Below the pieces are notes generated by a model. It was not told the DNA's origin, did not search any database, and saw nothing but the letters and a program-made list of their open reading frames with translations. A DNA stretch of 60,572 nt. It comes from Candidatus Eisenbacteria bacterium (lineage in GTDB: Bacteria > Eisenbacteria > RBG-16-71-46). The stretch lies in contig JABFRW010000019.1 of assembly GCA_013140805.1 (NCBI GenBank), forward strand, positions 1-60,572. The letters run 5' to 3'. Shown here piece by piece: positions 24,157-32,067 of the stretch. The stretch's first letter is position 1. Every line of letters starts with the position of its first letter. The translations under genes were made by a program, and so were the position numbers.

Positions 24157-25530
24157 ATGCGTGACATGACCCAAATCGAATCGAACACCTCGCCCTATCT
24201 CGCTGCCGCCCACGCCAACGATCGCGCCCACGTCTTCCACTCCTGGTCGGCCCAGGGAGCGCTCAATCCCACCGTGATCGCCGGAGCCAAGGGCTCCCGC
24301 ATGTGGGACGACAAGGGCAACACTTGGCTCGACTTCTCGAGCCAGCTCGTCAACGTGAACATCGGGCACCAGCACCCGAGGCTCGTCGCCGCGATCCAGG
24401 AACAGGCCGCGCGCATGTGCACGATCGCGCCGTTCCACGCCAACGACATGCGCAGTGAGGCCGCACGGCTGATCGCCGAGCTCGCCCCCGGTGATCTCGA
24501 CATGGTGTTCTTCACCAATGGAGGCACCGAAGCGATCGAGAACGCGGTGCGACTCGCGCGCGGACACACCGGACGCCACAAGCTCCTGTCGGCCTACCGG
24601 AGTTATCACGGCGCGACCGGCAACTCGATCATGCTGACCGGCGATCCGCGCCGCTGGGGCAATGAGCCGGGCGCCGCCGGGACCGTCAAGTTCTGGGGCC
24701 CGTATCTCTATCGCTCCGCGTTCCACGCCACGACGCCCGCGGAGGAATGCGATCGCGCACTCGAACACCTCGCGAACGTGCTGATGGTCGAGGGCGCCCA
24801 CACGGTGGCGGCGATCGTGCTCGAGAGCGTGGTCGGCACCAACGGCATTCTGGTTCCTCCCGATGGATATCTCGCCGGGGTGCGCGCGCTTTGCGATCAG
24901 CACGGCATCGTGATGATCTGCGATGAGGTCATGGCGGGCTTCGGACGCTGCGGCGAGTGGTTCGCAGTCGATCGCTGGAAGGTGACACCGGACCTCATCA
25001 CGTTCGCCAAGGGCTCGAACTCAGGCTACCTGCCGGTGGGTGGAGTGATCATCAGCCGAAAGATCGCCGAGACCTACCGGGACCGCGTCTTCCCCGGCGG
25101 CCTCACCTACTCGGGGCATCCGCTCGCGTGCGCATCGATCGTCGCGAGCATCGGCATCTTCAAGGACGAGAAGATCGTCGACAATGCGCGCAGGCTCGGC
25201 ACCGACGTGATCGGCCCGGAACTCGCGAAGATCGCGGTCAAGCATCCGAGTGTCGGTGAGGTCCGCGGGCTCGGAGTCTTCTGGGCCATCGAATTGGTGC
25301 GCGACCGCAAGACCCGGGCACCGCTGGTGCCGTTCAATGCCAGTGGCGCAGAGGCCAAACCGATGGTCGAGCTGATGGCCGCCTGCAAGGCTGGTGGCGT
25401 GTGGCCGTTCGCACACTTCAACCGCCTTCAGGTCACGCCACCCTGCACCACGACCGCGGACGAGGTACGCGAAGGACTCGCGGCGATCGACGTGGCGCTT
25501 GCGGTGGCGGATCGATACGCCGGCGAGTGA
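24157..25530 (+). CDS. Class III PLP aminotransferase
   Basis: A protein of about 457 aa with a full-length class III aminotransferase fold. Seen are SWSAQGALNP near the N-terminus, FFTNGGTEAIENAVRLAR (PLP phosphate loop), SYHGATG, the aspartate in MICDEVMAGFGR and the PLP lysine in ITFAKGSNSGYLPVGGV near residue 285. It is closest in style to omega-amino acid or taurine:pyruvate aminotransferases; the amino donor cannot be deduced. Two ATGs at 24157 and 24166 are possible. It is followed by a hairpin and is probably transcribed apart from the peptide cassette. Confidence 0.88.
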   Translation: MRDMTQIESNTSPYLAAAHANDRAHVFHSWSAQGALNPTVIAGAKGSRMWDDKGNTWLDFSSQLVNVNIGHQHPRLVAAIQEQAARMCTIAPFHANDMRSEAARLIAELAPGDLDMVFFTNGGTEAIENAVRLARGHTGRHKLLSAYRSYHGATGNSIMLTGDPRRWGNEPGAAGTVKFWGPYLYRSAFHATTPAEECDRALEHLANVLMVEGAHTVAAIVLESVVGTNGILVPPDGYLAGVRALCDQHGIVMICDEVMAGFGRCGEWFAVDRWKVTPDLITFAKGSNSGYLPVGGVIISRKIAETYRDRVFPGGLTYSGHPLACASIVASIGIFKDEKIVDNARRLGTDVIGPELAKIAVKHPSVGEVRGLGVFWAIELVRDRKTRAPLVPFNASGAEAKPMVELMAACKAGGVWPFAHFNRLQVTPPCTTTADEVREGLAAIDVALAVADRYAGE

Positions 25531-25548
25531 CGACTAGAAAGCGTCACT
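25526..25548 (+). terminator. Hairpin overlapping the aminotransferase stop codon
   Basis: AGTGACG (25526-25532) pairs perfectly with CGTCACT (25542-25548) around a 9-nt loop. The stop codon lies inside the stem. There is no T-tract. It separates the aminotransferase from the peptide cassette, which begins about 210 nt further on. Confidence 0.4.
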
Positions 25549-25756
25549 GAATCGCGACCGACTCGCCGCGCGTCGTCGCGGCTTCGCCACCGAAATCCGC
25601 CGCCTGATCCCAATCGCATTGCCGCTCGCCGCCGTCCCCCTCACATTGGTCGAGCGTCGGAATTCGACGCGAGGACCGGAGGCGAAGGACAGCGCGGCGC
25701 GACGCAGGCTGGCACGAATCGCCGTGCACTCGGACCATGCCAGCGCGGAGATCCCC

Positions 25757-25828
25757 ATGTTGGTTCGTACCGGACTTCAGGCAGGTGCCGGAATTCAGAT
25801 CGACGGCAACGGCCAGCCCACCGGCTAG
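25757..25828 (+). CDS. 23-aa putative exported peptide precursor, copy 1
   Basis: A tiny ORF with GGAG 6 nt before its ATG. It encodes a 23-residue peptide beginning MLVRTGLQAG and continuing with GIQIDGNGQP near its end. It aligns without gaps with the next ORF: 12 of 23 positions are identical, including M1, V3, R4, G6, A9, G10, G12, I13, I15, D16, G19 and P21. The frame is open further upstream to a TTG at 25619, but alignment of the two copies favours the short form. Its position just before a C39-type exporter suggests a secreted peptide (bacteriocin or signal). A C39 cut after A9-G10 is conceivable but not proven. Confidence 0.6.
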   Translation: MLVRTGLQAGAGIQIDGNGQPTG

Positions 25829-25839
25829 AGGAGGAATCC

Positions 25840-25911
25840 ATGAAGGTTCGTTCAGGTGTCCGTGCCGGCTACGGCATTGCCATCGATCCCGATGGCGCGC
25901 CCGCCCGCTGA
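25840..25911 (+). CDS. 23-aa putative exported peptide precursor, copy 2
   Basis: The second tiny ORF, starting 11 nt after the stop of copy 1, has a consensus AGGAGG (25829-25834) 5 nt before its ATG. The peptide begins MKVRSGVRAG and includes GIAIDPDGAP. It has exactly the same length as copy 1 and shares 12 residues with it, while the variable positions are mostly conservative (T/S, L/V, Q/R, N/D). This pattern of constrained change supports real coding. No cysteine, serine/threonine cluster or double-glycine leader is present, so typical lanthipeptide or class II bacteriocin features are lacking. Confidence 0.65.
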   Translation: MKVRSGVRAGYGIAIDPDGAPAR

Positions 25912-26051
25912 CCCGCTGAAACCTCACCCGGCTCCCTGCAAGTGAGGGTCGACGAGGCACCAGGAGCGCGCGCGGTTCGAGTGTCTGAGCTGCGCGCGCT
26001 CTTCGTCGTCATGCGCCTTCCACCGTCGAGCCGCCTCCGAACTCGAGCCTC
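25912..26051. other. Spacer between peptide genes and exporter genes
   Basis: This 140-nt spacer has no credible ORF. CCTCAC (25922-25927) can pair with GTGAGG (25942-25947) to form a small hairpin 10 nt after the second peptide gene. Such a hairpin could act as a partial terminator that keeps exporter expression below peptide expression. The stem is only 6 bp and has no T-tract. Confidence 0.3.
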
Positions 26052-27227
26052 ATGCGCAGTGCGTTTCTTCAAACCCTGACCGCGCTCGACTCGGACCGCG
26101 GACGCTTCGCGGCGGCTCTCTTCGTGGCCGGCGCTGCAATTCTGGTCGGTTGGGTCTCGTGGGGCGTCTGGGGCGAGTTGCCGATTCAGGTCTTCTCACA
26201 GCGCGCACGCTTCGAGTCGAGCGACGGCGTCCAGGTGGTTCGCGCCGCGGCAGCGGGTCTGGTGGTGGAATCGCGCCTCACACCGTCCTCGCACTGGAAT
26301 CCCGGCGACACCCTCGTGCTGCTCGACGACTCCCCCGATCGAGAAGCGTGGGCGGCCGCTCGCACTCGGCTCGCGGCGCTGCAGCGCCGTCACGCCGCGA
26401 TCCGCCGTCAGTGTCAGGCCCTCCTCGCCAGCGCGACGTTCGCTCGATCGGTCGCGGTGAGCGACTCGACCGCGTCGCGCGCGCGTGGCAACGAGGCCGA
26501 AGTCATGGCGCGAAGCGCGGAGCGGGACGCCGGGCGCTCGGCGAGCCTGCTTCGCGAGGGCCTGGTCGCGACCGCCGCGCATGAGCACGCGATGCTCGAG
26601 GCCGAGCGTCTGCGCGCCGCCGCGCAGGCGGCACTGGCGGGTCATGCGCGGGGCATCGCCGAACAGCTTCGGGCCCGCGCGCTGGCCGAGGACGCCCTCG
26701 CGGGCGCGCAGGCGGATCTCGCCGAGCTGGAGGGCGAGCTGGCACAGGCGCAGGCGCTCGGCGCGGGAGCGCGCGCGCACCTGTCCCACCGTGCGATCCT
26801 GGCCTCGTGCCGTTGCCAGCCGGTGCGTGTCGCGGCACTTCACACCGGGAGCTACGTCTCGCAGGGCGATACGCTCGCGTGGCTCTCGACGGACGGACCG
26901 CCGAGCGCGCACGCCGACTTCGCGCCGACCGACGCCATCGGTCGGATCGCCATCGGTCAATCGGCGACGATTCGCGCGGCACACCTCGCGCGGTCCGGCG
27001 ATCGCAGCTGGCCCGCGCGAGTGCGCCACCTGGCTCCCGAGCCGCAGAACGGTTCGGTGCGTGTCGAGCTGTCGCTCGAAGCTTCACACCGTGCATCCCG
27101 TGAGTTTCCGTACGGACTACCCTTGATCGTCGAGGTCACGGTCGGAACCGGCTCACCGCTCGAGTTGCTTCTGCTCGGCGCGCGACAGCGGTCGCGGAGA
27201 GGCGGCGCGGGTCCGAGCACCCGGTGA
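26052..27227 (+). CDS. HlyD-type periplasmic adaptor for peptide export
   Basis: A membrane fusion protein of about 391 aa. It has one transmembrane helix near the N-terminus (residues about 20-40, AALFVAGAAILVGWVSWGVW), a biotinyl/lipoyl-like half motif (VVRAAAAGLVVESRL ... WNPGDTLVLLDD), a long alanine/arginine-rich alpha-helical hairpin (about 95-230), the second half motif (ILASCRCQPVRVAALHTGSYVSQGDTLAWLS) and a beta-barrel part (FAPTDAIGRIAIGQSATIR). It would link the inner-membrane ABC transporters to the outer membrane. Its stop overlaps the start of the next gene by 4 nt (GTGA), so they are coupled. Confidence 0.8.
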   Translation: MRSAFLQTLTALDSDRGRFAAALFVAGAAILVGWVSWGVWGELPIQVFSQRARFESSDGVQVVRAAAAGLVVESRLTPSSHWNPGDTLVLLDDSPDREAWAAARTRLAALQRRHAAIRRQCQALLASATFARSVAVSDSTASRARGNEAEVMARSAERDAGRSASLLREGLVATAAHEHAMLEAERLRAAAQAALAGHARGIAEQLRARALAEDALAGAQADLAELEGELAQAQALGAGARAHLSHRAILASCRCQPVRVAALHTGSYVSQGDTLAWLSTDGPPSAHADFAPTDAIGRIAIGQSATIRAAHLARSGDRSWPARVRHLAPEPQNGSVRVELSLEASHRASREFPYGLPLIVEVTVGTGSPLELLLLGARQRSRRGGAGPSTR

Positions 27228-29941
27228 CCCGCTCCGGAACGATCTCAACCGTGCCTCGACGTCGAATACGATCCGCACTGGCCGTCGAGGTGGTGCAGAC
27301 CTCGGCGATGGACTGCGGTCCCGCGGCGCTTCAGTGCCTGCTCGCAGGTCACGGGCTCCGGTCGAGCTATCACCGCCTGCGAGAGCAATGCCACACCGGC
27401 GTGGACGGCACCTCGATCGATGCGCTCGAAGTCATCGCCGTTCAAATGGGACTGGACGCAGAGCAGGTCATGGTGCCAACCGACCACCTGCTGCTGCGCT
27501 CGAGCCGCTGCCTCCCGGCGCTCGCCGTCACGCGACTGCACGGAGGCGCGACTCACTTCGTCGTCGTGTGGTCCGCGTTTGGCGACTGGGTTCAGGTCAT
27601 GGACCCGGCGATTGGTCGGCTGTGGATCCGCACCCGACGACTCCTCGCATCGCTCTACCAGCACGGGCACGAGGTCGACGCGAGCGCGTACCGCACCTGG
27701 TGCGGCGGCGAAGAGATGCAGTCCGCGCTCCGTGAACGCATGGAACACCTCGACGTCTCCCGTGCGGAGGCGAACCGACATCTGGAGACCGCGAGCGAAG
27801 ACTCCGGCTGGCGATCGTTCGCGCGTCTCGACGCCGGCCTGCGAGCGACCGCGTCGCTGGTGCGAGGCGGCGGCGCACGGCGAGGCTCCGAGGCCACCGC
27901 CGTCGCGCGCACACTGCTCGAATCACCCTCGCCGGGCGCGGCGTGGGACGCCCTCATACCACGCGAGTACTGGTCGGTTCGCCCGGCCGCGACGACGGAC
28001 TCCGACTCGCTCGTGCTGCGCGGCTGCGTGCTGCTCCGGACGCCGAACGGCCGGCGTTCCGTACAGGCCGAAACGGCACAGATCGCGGACGACGCGAACT
28101 CGACCACTTCGGCCGCGGGATTGCGAGGCGACACGCGTGACCCGTTCGCCCGCACACTCTTGAGCCTCATCCTCCCCACGCCCTTGCGCGTGACGGCACT
28201 GCTCGGCGCTTCGATCCTCCTCGCGACCCTCGGCACGCTCATGCTCGCGGTGGTTCTGCGAGCGCTCGCGGGCGTCGGCCCGGCATCTCCCGATGAGGGA
28301 GTTCGATTCGCCATGGTCCTCTCGCTGCTGGTTCTCGCCCTGGCACTCACGCTCCTCGAGGTGCCGCTCGGCCTCGAGGCTCATCGACTCGGCCGTCGCC
28401 TCGAGGCTCGCCTCCGGTGTTCGATCCTCGACCACCTGCCGTGGTCGCGCAGTCGCTATCTCTCGAGCCTGCCGAGCTCGGACATCGCCGAACGTGCGCA
28501 CGCACTCCACGCCCTGCATGCGATGCCTCCGATGTTCGTCGCGATGGTGCGAGCCGCCTGCGAGTGGATGGCGATGGCGATCGGCGCGGTCACGCTGGTT
28601 CCCGCGCTGCTGCCGGCGGTCGGCGTGTCGCTGGCCCTCTCGCTCCCCATCGCGCTGCTGTCGAGATCGATTCTCGCCGAGCAGGACATGCGGTCCCGGG
28701 TGTTCTCGGGAGCCCTGACGCGCCTGCACCTCGACGCGCTGCTCGGCGCGGTTCCGATTCGTGCCAACGGCGCCGCATCGACGCTTCGAAGGCAGCACTC
28801 CCGGCTGCTCGCCGAATGGGGTCGGGCAATGCTGGCGGCAGCGAGCAATGGCCTCGTGACCTCGCTGCTGCTGATGCTGATCGCGGTCGGGACGCTTGGG
28901 ATTCTCGGACTCCCCCGACTGACTGCCGACGCACCATCGGGTGCTGTGCTGCTCGCCGTGTTCTGGACTCTGCGGCTGCCCTGGCTGGCTCAACGCATCG
29001 ATTCGATCGGCCGCGACCTGCTCGCAAGACGCAACATCGCACAGCGAGCGATGGAGCTCGCAATCGTCGCCGACGATCCGCACGCGGGTGATCCGGCGGA
29101 CGCATCGGAGTCGATCGCCGAACCGGACGTCGGCGTCTCGTTTCGGGCGGAGGCAGCCGAGATCTCACGCGGTGGACGCATCGTCCTGCGCGATCTGAGC
29201 TTCGAGATCCCGGGCGGTTGTCGCGCGGCGATCGTCGGTCCGTCGGGCGGCGGAAAGTCCACGCTGGTTGCATGGATGCTGGGCTGGCACGCCACGACCG
29301 CCGGGCGATTGTGGGTCGACGGACGAGCGGCCCACCCCGAGTCTTTCCGCGGACTGCGGGCCCAAACGGCATGGGCAGAGTCGGAGACTCGCGTCTGGAG
29401 TGACTCGCTCGAGCAGAATCTGAACTATGGCCTCGAGCCCGGCGCGACCCCTCGCGCCCGTGAGTCTCTCGTTCCGAGCGAATTGGCTGAGCTCGCGCGT
29501 TCGCTTCCTTCCGGAATGCAGGCGGGACTCGGTGACGGCGGCGGCCGACTGTCGCACGGTGAGGCGCAACGAGTGCGGTTCGGCCGCGCGTATGGACGTC
29601 GCACGGCACGCGTGGTCATCCTCGACGAAGCGTTCTCCGGCCTCGATCGGGAGCAACGCCGCCGTCTGAGCGCAGTCGCTCGCGAGCGCTGGCCGAGCGC
29701 CACCGTGGTCTGCGTGACGCACGACCTCCTCGACGCACTCCACTTCGATCGGGTGATGGTGGTGGTCGACGGCACGATCGTCGAGAACGGTGAGCCGCCC
29801 GCACTCGCTGCATCTGAAGCGTCTCAGTTCGCGCGCCTGCTGGCGGAGGAGCGCTCCGCGCTCGAACTGCTGGACTCGAAGCGATGGCGCCGACTGGATC
29901 TCGACGCCGGACGACTGCATTCGCGTCACGACGCTCCATGA
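27224..29941 (+). CDS. Peptidase-containing ABC transporter (C39 PCAT)
   Basis: A 905-aa exporter starting with GTG. Residues 20-150 are a C39 peptidase with all expected residues: Q25 (oxyanion), C31 in SAMDCGPAAL, H111 in THFVVV and D127 in VMDPAIG. A long hydrophilic segment of about 150 residues separates it from the six-helix membrane domain (about 310-590). The ATPase domain has Walker A GPSGGGKST (about residue 671), a signature variant LSHGEAQR and Walker B VVILDEAFSGLD. The family cuts leader peptides and pumps the product out. It probably handles the two 23-residue peptides. It overlaps both neighbours by 4 nt. Confidence 0.88.
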   Translation: MTRSGTISTVPRRRIRSALAVEVVQTSAMDCGPAALQCLLAGHGLRSSYHRLREQCHTGVDGTSIDALEVIAVQMGLDAEQVMVPTDHLLLRSSRCLPALAVTRLHGGATHFVVVWSAFGDWVQVMDPAIGRLWIRTRRLLASLYQHGHEVDASAYRTWCGGEEMQSALRERMEHLDVSRAEANRHLETASEDSGWRSFARLDAGLRATASLVRGGGARRGSEATAVARTLLESPSPGAAWDALIPREYWSVRPAATTDSDSLVLRGCVLLRTPNGRRSVQAETAQIADDANSTTSAAGLRGDTRDPFARTLLSLILPTPLRVTALLGASILLATLGTLMLAVVLRALAGVGPASPDEGVRFAMVLSLLVLALALTLLEVPLGLEAHRLGRRLEARLRCSILDHLPWSRSRYLSSLPSSDIAERAHALHALHAMPPMFVAMVRAACEWMAMAIGAVTLVPALLPAVGVSLALSLPIALLSRSILAEQDMRSRVFSGALTRLHLDALLGAVPIRANGAASTLRRQHSRLLAEWGRAMLAAASNGLVTSLLLMLIAVGTLGILGLPRLTADAPSGAVLLAVFWTLRLPWLAQRIDSIGRDLLARRNIAQRAMELAIVADDPHAGDPADASESIAEPDVGVSFRAEAAEISRGGRIVLRDLSFEIPGGCRAAIVGPSGGGKSTLVAWMLGWHATTAGRLWVDGRAAHPESFRGLRAQTAWAESETRVWSDSLEQNLNYGLEPGATPRARESLVPSELAELARSLPSGMQAGLGDGGGRLSHGEAQRVRFGRAYGRRTARVVILDEAFSGLDREQRRRLSAVARERWPSATVVCVTHDLLDALHFDRVMVVVDGTIVENGEPPALAASEASQFARLLAEERSALELLDSKRWRRLDLDAGRLHSRHDAP

Positions 29942-32067
29942 CGCAGCCCCGCCTCGCTCCAACCGCATGGACGCCCGACAGGCTGTGCGGCGCATTGGAG
30001 CGGCTCGCCGGCTCGAGCGGCAACCGCGATCGAGTCGCAGCGCCGCAGCGAGAACTCCTGACCGCGGCGCTCTCGGGTTCGCTCGAGCTCGCGGACCGTG
30101 CGATCGCAAGTGAGTGCGCTCGACTCGGCCTCGAGTGCGAAACCGTCTCGATGACGCGGGAGGATCTCGAAACCCATCTGCACCATCACGCTCCGCTGAT
30201 CGTGCGTGTTCACGACGAAGCACCGCCGGGCTATGCAGTGATCGAAGGCGCTCGCTGGGGCCAGATTCGAGTGGCGTGCCCCGATGGCTCGACTCGAAGC
30301 GTGTCGATTCGCGATTGGATCGCGCGACTCCCGGTTCCGGACCGAGTGCGGCGCGAAGTCGACCAGCTGATCGAACGCTCGCGGATCGCCCCGCGTCGAC
30401 GCGCGATCGCTGCGGCTCAGCTCGAGAAGGAACGTCTGGCAGGACACCGATGTGCGACGGGCTGGAGCCTGCATCGACGCAGCGGCGCTCCGCTCACGAC
30501 CGCCCTGTCGGAGGATGGCGTCTTCGCGCATGCCCTCTGGAGTCTGGGATTCAGTCTGCTCGCGCGGGCCTTGTCGATCGGCGGATGGGTCGTGCTGTTC
30601 GATGCACTCACGGATCGCAACCTCACCGGCAGTGTGATGTTCGCGTGGGTGCTCCTGGTCGCGACCGGCGAGTTCGCGCAAATGACGGCGGGCTGGTTCC
30701 AGTCCCACGGATCCGTGCGCCTCGGAGCGTTGCTCCGGGATCGGATGCTGCTCGGCGCCACGCGTCTCGGACTGGATGCCGTTCGGATCCGTGGCGCGGG
30801 ACACTGGCTCGGCATCGTGCTCGAGTCGCACGGCTTCGAGAGCCACACGATCGGCGGCGTATTCGGTGGCGCGCTGACATCGGTCGAGCTCGCGGCTGCA
30901 ATCGCCGTGCTGCTGGCGGCCCCGCATACGACCGGGCTCGCGTGGCTGTTGATGGCGTGGTGCGTCGCCTCGATCGCACTGCATGTGTGGCGGCTCCCGC
31001 GCTGGCGAGCCTGGTTCCGAACGCGACAGCGACTCAGCCGGCGGATGGTGGAAGGCATGCTCGGCCACCGCACACGCGCGATGCAGGAGGCACCCGGGGC
31101 GCCCGATCACGAACTGGACGCTGCAGCGGAGCGACACCTTCGAGTGTCCGGCGAGTTGGACCGCTGGCAGGTGTGGATCGCGGTGCTCGCCCCACGCGGC
31201 TGGCTGGTGGCGGGATTCGCGCTTCTGCTCACCGACGCTTCGTGGCGCGAAACCGTGGCCGGAACTTCATGGATGACCGTCGCGGGTCTGTTGCTCGGCT
31301 ACGGCGCGCTGGAACGGCTGACGACTGCGTGTTCGAGCCTGTCGAATGCGGCCGCCGCCCTCGACTCGATCCGACCGCTGCTCCGCGCCGCGCGCCGCGC
31401 GAATCGAGCGACGCGACCCGAAGCGCCGATCGAACCGGAGTGGCTGCCGACCGGCGAGCCGGTCATCGAGTGTGTCGCGATCGGCTATCGCCACCGCGGC
31501 CGGCTGAACGAGGTGTTGCGCGGATGCAGTCTCGAGATCGGGCCCGGCGCGCGCGTGTCGATTGACGGTGCTTCGGCATGCGGTAAGTCAACCCTCGCCG
31601 GAATACTCGCCGGAATTCGTATCGCTCGTTCCGGCCAGGTGCGAATCGGGGGGCGTGACGCGCGTTCGATTCCGGAGCGGGATCGAGTGCGGCACCTGTC
31701 ACTGGCCCCTCAGCCGAGCGAAAACCACGTGTTCTCGGACACCCTCGCTTTCAACCTGTTGCTCGGACGCCCGTGGCCGCATCGAGCGGAGGACTACGAG
31801 GACGCGCGGCTCGTCTGCGAAGAGCTCGGCCTGGGCTCGCTGATTCGACGAATGCCCGCAGGGCTGCACCAGCAGGTCGGCGAGGTCGGATGGCAGCTCT
31901 CGCAGGGCGAGTCCCATCGGGTGTTCATCGCTCGCGCGATGCTGCAGCGCTCGCGGGTCGTGATCCTGGACGAGGGGCTCGGAGGCCTGGATCCCGCCAG
32001 CAGGTCCCGGTGCCTCGGCATGCTCGATCGCAGGCCCGAAGCGGTGGTGCTCACTTCGGTCCGCTAA
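29938..32067 (+). CDS. Second peptide-export ABC transporter with inactive C39-like domain
   Basis: A 709-aa permease/ATPase whose ATG overlaps the preceding stop (ATGA). The first 180 residues resemble a C39-like fold: ECARLGLECETVSMTREDLETHL, then LIVRVHDEAPPGYAVIEG, where the catalytic histidine position is tyrosine. The catalytic cysteine motif DCG is absent, so it should not cut peptides. A membrane domain spans about 190-480. The ATPase has Walker A GASACGKST (about residue 544), signature LSQGESHR and Walker B VVILDEGLGGLD. Pairing of a C39-active and a C39-dead ABC protein with HlyD is the layout of NHLM-type exporters. Confidence 0.82.
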   Translation: MTQPRLAPTAWTPDRLCGALERLAGSSGNRDRVAAPQRELLTAALSGSLELADRAIASECARLGLECETVSMTREDLETHLHHHAPLIVRVHDEAPPGYAVIEGARWGQIRVACPDGSTRSVSIRDWIARLPVPDRVRREVDQLIERSRIAPRRRAIAAAQLEKERLAGHRCATGWSLHRRSGAPLTTALSEDGVFAHALWSLGFSLLARALSIGGWVVLFDALTDRNLTGSVMFAWVLLVATGEFAQMTAGWFQSHGSVRLGALLRDRMLLGATRLGLDAVRIRGAGHWLGIVLESHGFESHTIGGVFGGALTSVELAAAIAVLLAAPHTTGLAWLLMAWCVASIALHVWRLPRWRAWFRTRQRLSRRMVEGMLGHRTRAMQEAPGAPDHELDAAAERHLRVSGELDRWQVWIAVLAPRGWLVAGFALLLTDASWRETVAGTSWMTVAGLLLGYGALERLTTACSSLSNAAAALDSIRPLLRAARRANRATRPEAPIEPEWLPTGEPVIECVAIGYRHRGRLNEVLRGCSLEIGPGARVSIDGASACGKSTLAGILAGIRIARSGQVRIGGRDARSIPERDRVRHLSLAPQPSENHVFSDTLAFNLLLGRPWPHRAEDYEDARLVCEELGLGSLIRRMPAGLHQQVGEVGWQLSQGESHRVFIARAMLQRSRVVILDEGLGGLDPASRSRCLGMLDRRPEAVVLTSVR

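What the first reader, a model, noticed from the sequence alone, without database searches (positions are those of the whole stretch)
25757..25911. Two 23-residue sister peptides with conserved spacing and strong ribosome sites
Both ORFs are exactly 23 codons long, 11 nt apart, each with its own Shine-Dalgarno site. Twelve positions are identical and most differences are conservative (T/S, L/V, Q/R, N/D). The shared pattern starts V-R-[ST]-G-[LV]-[QR]-A-G and continues with G-I-x-I-D-x-x-G-x-P. Chance ORFs would not align this way. If a C39 enzyme cuts after A9-G10 the products would be 13 residues, with a leader of only 10.
Basis: partly seen in the sequence, partly recalled or inferred. Interest (0 to 1): 0.82.

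Follow-up and report, generated by a model that had tools for sequence, protein, structure and literature searches.

The report
Tandem mini-peptides with shared export tag
Two tiny neighbouring genes encode sister 23-residue peptides that start with a short tag also found on very different peptides beside related exporters in other bacterial phyla, so they are probably cut and secreted by the export pump encoded next to them; what the released peptides do is unknown.

Summary
Two 23-codon ORFs (25757-25828, 25840-25911) lie 11 nt apart, each with a Shine-Dalgarno site; 12 of 23 residues are identical, and no other of 492 adjacent short-ORF pairs in the window scores close. They sit upstream of an operon HlyD / C39-peptidase ABC / second ABC (26052-32067), behind a strong hairpin.

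The decisive evidence is from elsewhere. Orthologous exporters occur in 24 of 579 genomes of two other phyla. Beside 14 of those 24 lie short ORFs with the same eight-residue element, about [VI]-[KR]-[ST]-x-[VIL]-[KR]-A-G: lone mini-peptides, sister ORFs, multi-core precursors, graspetide precursors beside ATP-grasp enzymes, and precursors beside radical-SAM enzymes. So residues 3-10 of the window peptides are most likely the recognition and cleavage tag of a C39 exporter family, and the 13 residues after A9-G10 the secreted cores. The tag does not fit the published C39 code (hydrophobic at -4, -7, -12). No Pfam or NCBIfam model covers the window peptides. Cleavage, secretion and activity are inferred. 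Verdict: real; a new variant of C39 peptide export.

The parts
25757..25828 (+). Peptide 1, 23 aa, MLVRTGLQAG|AGIQIDGNGQPTG (bar: predicted C39 cut)
25763..25786 (+). Export/cleavage tag VRTGLQAG of peptide 1 (residues 3-10)
25840..25911 (+). Peptide 2, 23 aa, MKVRSGVRAG|YGIAIDPDGAPAR
25846..25869 (+). Export/cleavage tag VRSGVRAG of peptide 2 (residues 3-10)
25962..26003 (+). 18-bp RNA hairpin between the peptide genes and the exporter operon (-44.8 kcal/mol for 25945-26025, z -3.5); likely transcription attenuator or mRNA stabiliser (inferred)
26052..27227 (+). HlyD-like periplasmic adaptor of the exporter
27224..29941 (+). C39 peptidase - permease - ATPase (catalytic C31, H111, D127; oxyanion Q25), the presumed processing exporter
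29884..32067 (+). Second ABC transporter without peptidase domain
24166..25530 (+). Upstream flank: class III aminotransferase, 83-90% identical in 8 family relatives that lack the cassette behind it; not part of the system

Best explanation
The two ORFs are minimal secreted-peptide precursors. Residues 3-10 (V-R-[ST]-G-[LV]-[QR]-A-G) are a compact export tag read by the C39 domain of the neighbouring HlyD/C39-ABC/ABC2 exporter; the C39 cysteine protease cuts after Gly10 and 13-residue cores (AGIQIDGNGQPTG and YGIAIDPDGAPAR) are exported through the envelope. Shown: the ORFs, their paralogy, the operon, an intact C39 active site, and the tag's association with this exporter family across phyla and peptide classes. 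Inferred: translation, cleavage position, export, and that the cores are unmodified (no RiPP enzyme among the window genes examined). Most likely role, weakly supported: a pair of short signalling or bacteriocin-like peptides.
For: Paralogous in-frame pair far above chance. Same-strand order peptides - hairpin - HlyD - C39-ABC - ABC2, repeated in L048, L052 and L054 with gaps of 89, 151 and 179 nt that also fold well (z -2.2, -4.7, -2.2). Orthologous exporters: 2 others in 385 relatives, 6 of 297 and 18 of 282 genomes of two other phyla, one plasmid. A DNA pattern shaped on peptide 2 (MKV[KR][ST]x[VIL][KR]AG) hits 5 of 579 genomes, 4 of them among the 24 exporter carriers (p = 1e-5); the fifth lacks the basic residues (MKVSSSLSAG). 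V[KR][ST]x[VIL][KRQ]AG in an ATG+SD ORF of at most 160 aa: 9 ORFs in 8 of 29 exporter loci, 0 in 20 same-genome control loci, 0 in shuffled loci. Position-matrix scan: 18 such ORFs in 14 genomes. C39 residues C31, H111 and D127 invariant in 25 of 25 family domains.
Against: No translation, cleavage or secretion data. 8 of 24 exporter genomes showed no matching peptide in what was fetched (G129, G293, G763, G870, G944, and G703, G747, G853, whose exporters lie at contig ends). The published C39 recognition code (hydrophobic -4, -7, -12; GG/GA/GS) is only partly met: -4 and a small -2/-1, but basic -7 and no residue at -12; LahT147 does not accept charged residues at -7 (PMC6363468). In multi-core precursors a cut after A-G alone would leave a core joined to the next tag, so a second cut would be needed. 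The matrix was seeded partly from the loci it then scored (circular), hence the pattern and regex tests.
Confidence: 0.78

Rival explanations
1. The tag is a docking element for the exporter but is not cleaved there: the peptides are exported whole, or the element itself is the active part (it is what repeats in the multi-core precursors).
For: The element is the only conserved part, and in L054 and L057 it is repeated in tandem, so a released repeat unit could contain it.
Against: It ends in a small A-G after a hydrophobic -4 residue, as double-glycine leaders do, and the exporter has an intact C39 protease; in graspetide precursors it sits between the PFFARFLE leader and the TMKYPSD core, where a leader cut is expected.
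Confidence: 0.12
2. They are RiPP precursors whose modifying enzyme lies elsewhere in the genome, so the product is a modified peptide.
For: Other loci of the same exporter family carry ATP-grasp (L062, L066, L067), radical SAM (L060, L069), LanB (L019, L058) or DUF692/MoeB (L013) genes.
Against: None of the 12 window genes scanned with Pfam outside the peptides and the exporter is such an enzyme; the mini-peptide loci L048, L051, L052, L053 also showed none among the genes scanned. The rest of the own genome was not searched for such enzymes.
Confidence: 0.2
3. Chance ORFs or a degenerated duplication with no peptide function.
For: Very short; absent from close relatives.
Against: Pair statistics, SD sites, operon position, and the tag recurring with the exporter in other phyla.
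Confidence: 0.03

Closest known systems
C39 peptidase-containing ABC transporters (PCAT/AMS; LahT, PCAT1, ComA) and double-glycine leaders
   Same: C39-permease-ATPase architecture; sequence match to PCAT1, LahT and ComA structures; small residues at -2/-1 and hydrophobic -4.
   Different: Tag is A-G rather than GG/GA/GS, basic at -3 and -7, no -12 residue in the window peptides; leader 10 residues long. Charged -7 blocks LahT147 (PMC6363468, passages read).
NHLM/NHLP export system (TIGR03794, TIGR03796, TIGR03797; PMC2887384, passages read)
   Same: Same trio and order: HlyD, peptidase-ABC, second ABC.
   Different: Far below the curated cut-offs (31.9 of 156.2; 116.6 of 853.3; 81.2 of 709.4 bits); no nitrile-hydratase or Nif11 leader.
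Microviridin-type graspetides (NF033738, PF12559)
   Same: Three loci of this exporter family carry them with the same tag between leader and core.
   Different: Window peptides have no PFFARFL leader, no TxKYPSD core, no ATP-grasp gene among the window genes scanned.
Class II microcins / two-peptide bacteriocins (recalled, not tested by a call)
   Same: Unmodified peptides exported by C39 ABC transporters; paired genes.
   Different: No long GG leader, no immunity gene recognised, cores only 13 residues.

Membership tests
C39 peptidase exporters (PCAT) | N-terminal C39 domain with Cys-His-Asp triad and oxyanion Gln, fused to permease and ATPase | tested here: met
   PF03412 71.2 bits, ABC_tran 60.7 bits; C31, H111, D127, Q25 aligned with PCAT1 and other C39 domains
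C39 peptidase exporters (PCAT) | Substrate with double-glycine motif and hydrophobic -4, -7, -12 | tested here: not met
   A-G instead of GG/GA/GS; -4 is met (V/L/I in 18 of 18 ORFs), -7 is K/R in 15 of 18; -12 does not exist in the window peptides
NHLM/NHLP export system | Equivalog scores for HlyD, ABC1, ABC2 | tested here: not met
NHLM/NHLP export system | Gene order HlyD - peptidase ABC - ABC | tested here: met
NHLM/NHLP export system | Nitrile-hydratase-like or Nif11 leader on the precursor | tested here: not met
   No NCBIfam or Pfam match for either peptide at E up to 1
Graspetide | ATP-grasp ligase and microviridin-type precursor | tested here: not met
   for the window genes scanned
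RiPP in general | Post-translational modification | not testable with these tools
   No modifying enzyme among the window genes scanned; needs mass spectrometry
Tagged peptides of this exporter family (the group defined here) | Tag in a short ORF in a genome with the orthologous exporter | tested here: met

The most novel reading that the evidence does not exclude
A secretion code that is independent of peptide class: an eight-residue basic tag, [VI]-[KR]-T-x-[VIL]-[KR]-A-G, by itself sends any C-terminal passenger (mini-peptide, graspetide, radical-SAM product, multi-core repeat) through a distinct C39 exporter family, recognised not by a hydrophobic helix groove but by family-specific acidic positions of the C39 domain (E22, D61, D66, E69); the window holds some of the smallest natural substrates of it.
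Probability: 0.5. Interest if true: 0.82.

Novelty: new variant of a known kind. Interest (0 to 1): 0.72.

Why it matters
Genes of 23 codons are easily missed by gene callers. The tag gives a searchable handle on secreted peptides in poorly studied phyla, ties together peptide classes that are normally mined one by one, and predicts a C39 recognition mode that departs from the helix-groove model seen in LahT. A ten-residue leader would also be a handy secretion or traceless-cleavage tag.

Tried and rejected
Close relatives gave no help, because the exporter is absent from them. The aminotransferase upstream is native to the family (83-90% identical in 8 relatives), and in the flanks fetched those relatives show neither HlyD nor the AsmA gene, so the cassette looks like an accessory insertion; the exact empty site was not resolved.

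Regex scans of the first relatives' loci (L013/L014, L018, L019) gave nothing convincing; the signal appeared only with the larger set. There, besides 8 convincing ORFs outside the window, four frames looked like chance (in L013, L018, L056, L067), and so did one on the minus strand of the window (52571). A matrix hit of 16.5 in L050 (inside a gene, no SD) and one of 16.7 in a control locus (no start codon) were not counted. The comparison by locus alone is modest (8 of 29 against 0 of 20, p = 0.015).

Burkholderiales: 0 of 260 genomes, although a Piscinibacter plasmid carries the exporter. A tree of 24 exporters is star-like (2 starred inner branches of 21) and says nothing about substrate type. 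A sigma-70 scan of 25500-26100 found no promoter-like site. Family models: none for the window peptides; of ten other precursors typed in, only the L062 one has a convincing match (microviridin); low-complexity hits of the L057 repeat, one of them just at its cut-off, were ignored. Neighbour genes: only the exporter trio is common to the loci; kinase-like genes occur near 10 loci but look generic. Papers: searches listed no paper describing the tag; I read only passages of PMC8939145, PMC10885120, PMC2887384 and PMC6363468, the rest as listings. I recall seeing hypothetical proteins with VKTNVKAG...NHNE-like sequence in databases; that comes from no call.

Full report
WHAT IS THERE. The two ORFs exist as described: 25757-25828 MLVRTGLQAGAGIQIDGNGQPTG and 25840-25911 MKVRSGVRAGYGIAIDPDGAPAR, 11 nt apart, each with an SD site. 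Twelve of 23 residues agree. Of all 492 adjacent same-strand pairs of 15-40-codon ORFs in the window this pair scores 57 and the next 29; 0 of 200,000 shuffles reach it, and the 13 residues after the shared element are themselves alike (41 of 200,000). The likeness is confined to this reading frame. In the own genome a loose DNA form of the element matches 16 times (reversed control: 5); of these only the two in the window have the basic residues together with an ATG+SD just upstream and a short frame after it.

SURROUNDINGS. 140 nt downstream, on the same strand, begins an operon: a HlyD-like adaptor (26052-27227), a C39 peptidase-permease-ATPase (27224-29941; PF03412 71 bits, ABC_tran 61 bits) and a second ABC transporter (29884-32067). 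The gap folds into an 18-bp hairpin (z -3.5 for 25945-26025). The order is that of NHLM export systems, but scores are far under those models' cut-offs. Neither peptide matches Pfam or NCBIfam at E up to 1. None of ten further window genes scanned is a peptide-modifying enzyme (FAD oxidase, TPR, hydrolase, DUF4097, Ysc84, TPR, histidine kinase, sigma-54 activator, one without family, beta-lactamase family), nor are the two flanking genes (aminotransferase, AsmA). The aminotransferase (PRK06062, 745 bits) is native to the bacterial family: 83-90% identical in 8 relatives that lack the cassette behind it.

RELATIVES. No other genome of the window's small phylum (47 genomes held) matches the peptide pattern, and none there has the exporter. 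With the C39-plus-membrane part as query, 2 genomes besides the own one match among 385 relatives (37% and 32% identity), both with the full trio. A profile of four exporters (A2) then finds 6 of 297 and 18 of 282 genomes in the phyla of those two. A Piscinibacter plasmid also carries the trio; 0 of 260 Burkholderiales genomes do. I fetched 25 regions besides L013/L014, L018 and L019.

THE TAG. A regex drawn from the window peptides alone picked out short ORFs beside these exporters. The fuller scan lists, besides the window pair, 18 ORFs with a start codon and SD in 14 of the 24 exporter genomes. Mini-peptides: MKVKTKVKAGLAPTCGCG... (L052), MKVETDVKAGGAIWVGDGRGNHNETIVG (L051), three sister ORFs MK[AV]KTNVKAG... 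of 24-30 residues (L053), MNSKKAKKLVVKTGLRAGVARPIVVC (L061), MKSATKIDKKSTGIAVRTAIKAGYRVRYGSCG... (L056). Two sister 42-mers ending INTNVKAG-GVVISD and -GVLISD (L048), just upstream of HlyD. Multi-core precursors: L054, three tags with NHN-type cores, directly upstream of HlyD; L057, seven tags scored and an eighth ending in AD seen by eye, with cores such as GSYNHS and AITENHG. Graspetide precursors in L062, L066 and L067 (two), PFF-type leader - tag - TMKYPSD core, with MvdD-type ATP-grasp genes nearby; the L062 peptide scores 52.8 in NF033738, cut-off 26. L059, L060 and L069 have longer leaders; L060 and L069 lie beside radical-SAM genes. LanB genes lie beside the exporters of L019 and L058, for which I found no tag. 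G446 has a tagged mini-peptide on another contig (L073); G541 has a GG variant, LKTAVRGG, behind its exporter (L050). The other eight of the 24 exporter genomes gave nothing; three of them have exporters at contig ends.

CONTROLS. The matrix used ten seeds, eight of them from these loci, so its count is partly circular. Two tests are less so. (1) A DNA pattern for MKV[KR][ST]x[VIL][KR]AG, shaped on peptide 2: 3 of 297 and 2 of 282 genomes match; four of the five are among the 24 exporter carriers, p = 1e-5; the fifth reads MKVSSSLSAG. The reversed control pattern hits one genome of the 579. (2) V[KR][ST]x[VIL][KRQ]AG with ATG+SD: 9 ORFs in 8 of 29 exporter loci (462,579 bp), 0 in 20 control loci of the same genomes (322,524 bp), 0 in triplet shuffles; p = 0.015 by locus. 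At matrix score 16 or more the controls gave one hit, without a start codon.

HOW IT WORKS. What follows the A-G differs wholly between unrelated loci; the tag does not. In the 18 ORFs: -8 V or I in 15, -7 K/R in 15, -6 T in 17 and S in 1, -4 V/L/I in 18, -3 K/R in 18, -2 A and -1 G in 18 (selection by the matrix favours this). That looks like a leader/core border, and the exporter has an intact C39 triad (C31, H111, D127 in 25 of 25 family domains). So I infer a cut after Gly10 and release of 13-mers. Published C39 recognition is an amphipathic helix with hydrophobic -4, -7, -12 before GG, GA or GS (PMC10885120, passages), and LahT147 does not accept charged residues at -4 or -7 (PMC6363468, passages). 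The tag keeps the small pair and the -4 residue, but is basic at -7 and -3 and, in the window, too short for -12. The C39 domains of this family share a signature around CQTDVDGTSIDxLE: E22 and D61 in 25 of 25, E69 in 22, D66 in 20; at D66 and E69 none of the 8 ordinary C39 domains compared is acidic, at D61 at least two are. Pairing of these acidic positions with the basic tag is my hypothesis.

Three other loci repeat the window's layout, peptide(s) - 89 to 179 nt - HlyD on one strand, and their gaps (of L054 150 of 179 nt) also fold better than shuffles. A hairpin there would let much more precursor than exporter be made (inference).

WHAT IT IS NOT. It is not an NHLM system by score, not a graspetide, and by its tag not a standard double-glycine substrate. 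It works like a C39 export system. Whether the cores are modified, and whether they signal or kill, is open.

NOVELTY. I found no paper with the tag (searches; open-access PubMed Central only), so it may be in print elsewhere. I rate it a new variant of a known kind.

Noticed in passing
L013 and L014 (NZ_CP136338.1, Piscinibacter gummiphilus plasmid): Orthologous exporter trio beside a MoaD/ThiS-family protein, a MoeB-type enzyme, a DUF692 iron protein and a carbamoyltransferase; the annotated 57-aa hypothetical between MoeB and DUF692 carries a weak form of the tag (AKVNVKLG). Looks like a DUF692-type RiPP cluster.
   Followed up: partly
L057:2627-3010 (-): Multi-core precursor with about eight tandem tag + NHG/NHS units, an unusual repeat architecture for a C39 substrate.
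   Followed up: partly
L059:6088-6285 and L060:12484-12690: Related precursors with a helical-looking leader, the tag, and a core of the form CKPWLCPMPxYGxPxPxEL; L060 has an adjacent radical-SAM maturase scoring 538 bits in TIGR04103 (cut-off 725).
   Followed up: partly
window 27224-29941, residues about 150-310: The C39 exporters of this family carry a poorly conserved stretch of roughly 150 residues between the C39 domain and the membrane part (alignment).
   Followed up: no
L050:1219-6806, L019:9187-10983 and others: Protein-kinase-like genes lie near 10 of the exporter loci; may be generic for these phyla.
   Followed up: no
window 25757-25911, cores: Both cores hold a short acidic turn (IDGNG, IDPDG) reminiscent of calcium-binding loops; a recalled resemblance, untested.
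   Followed up: no
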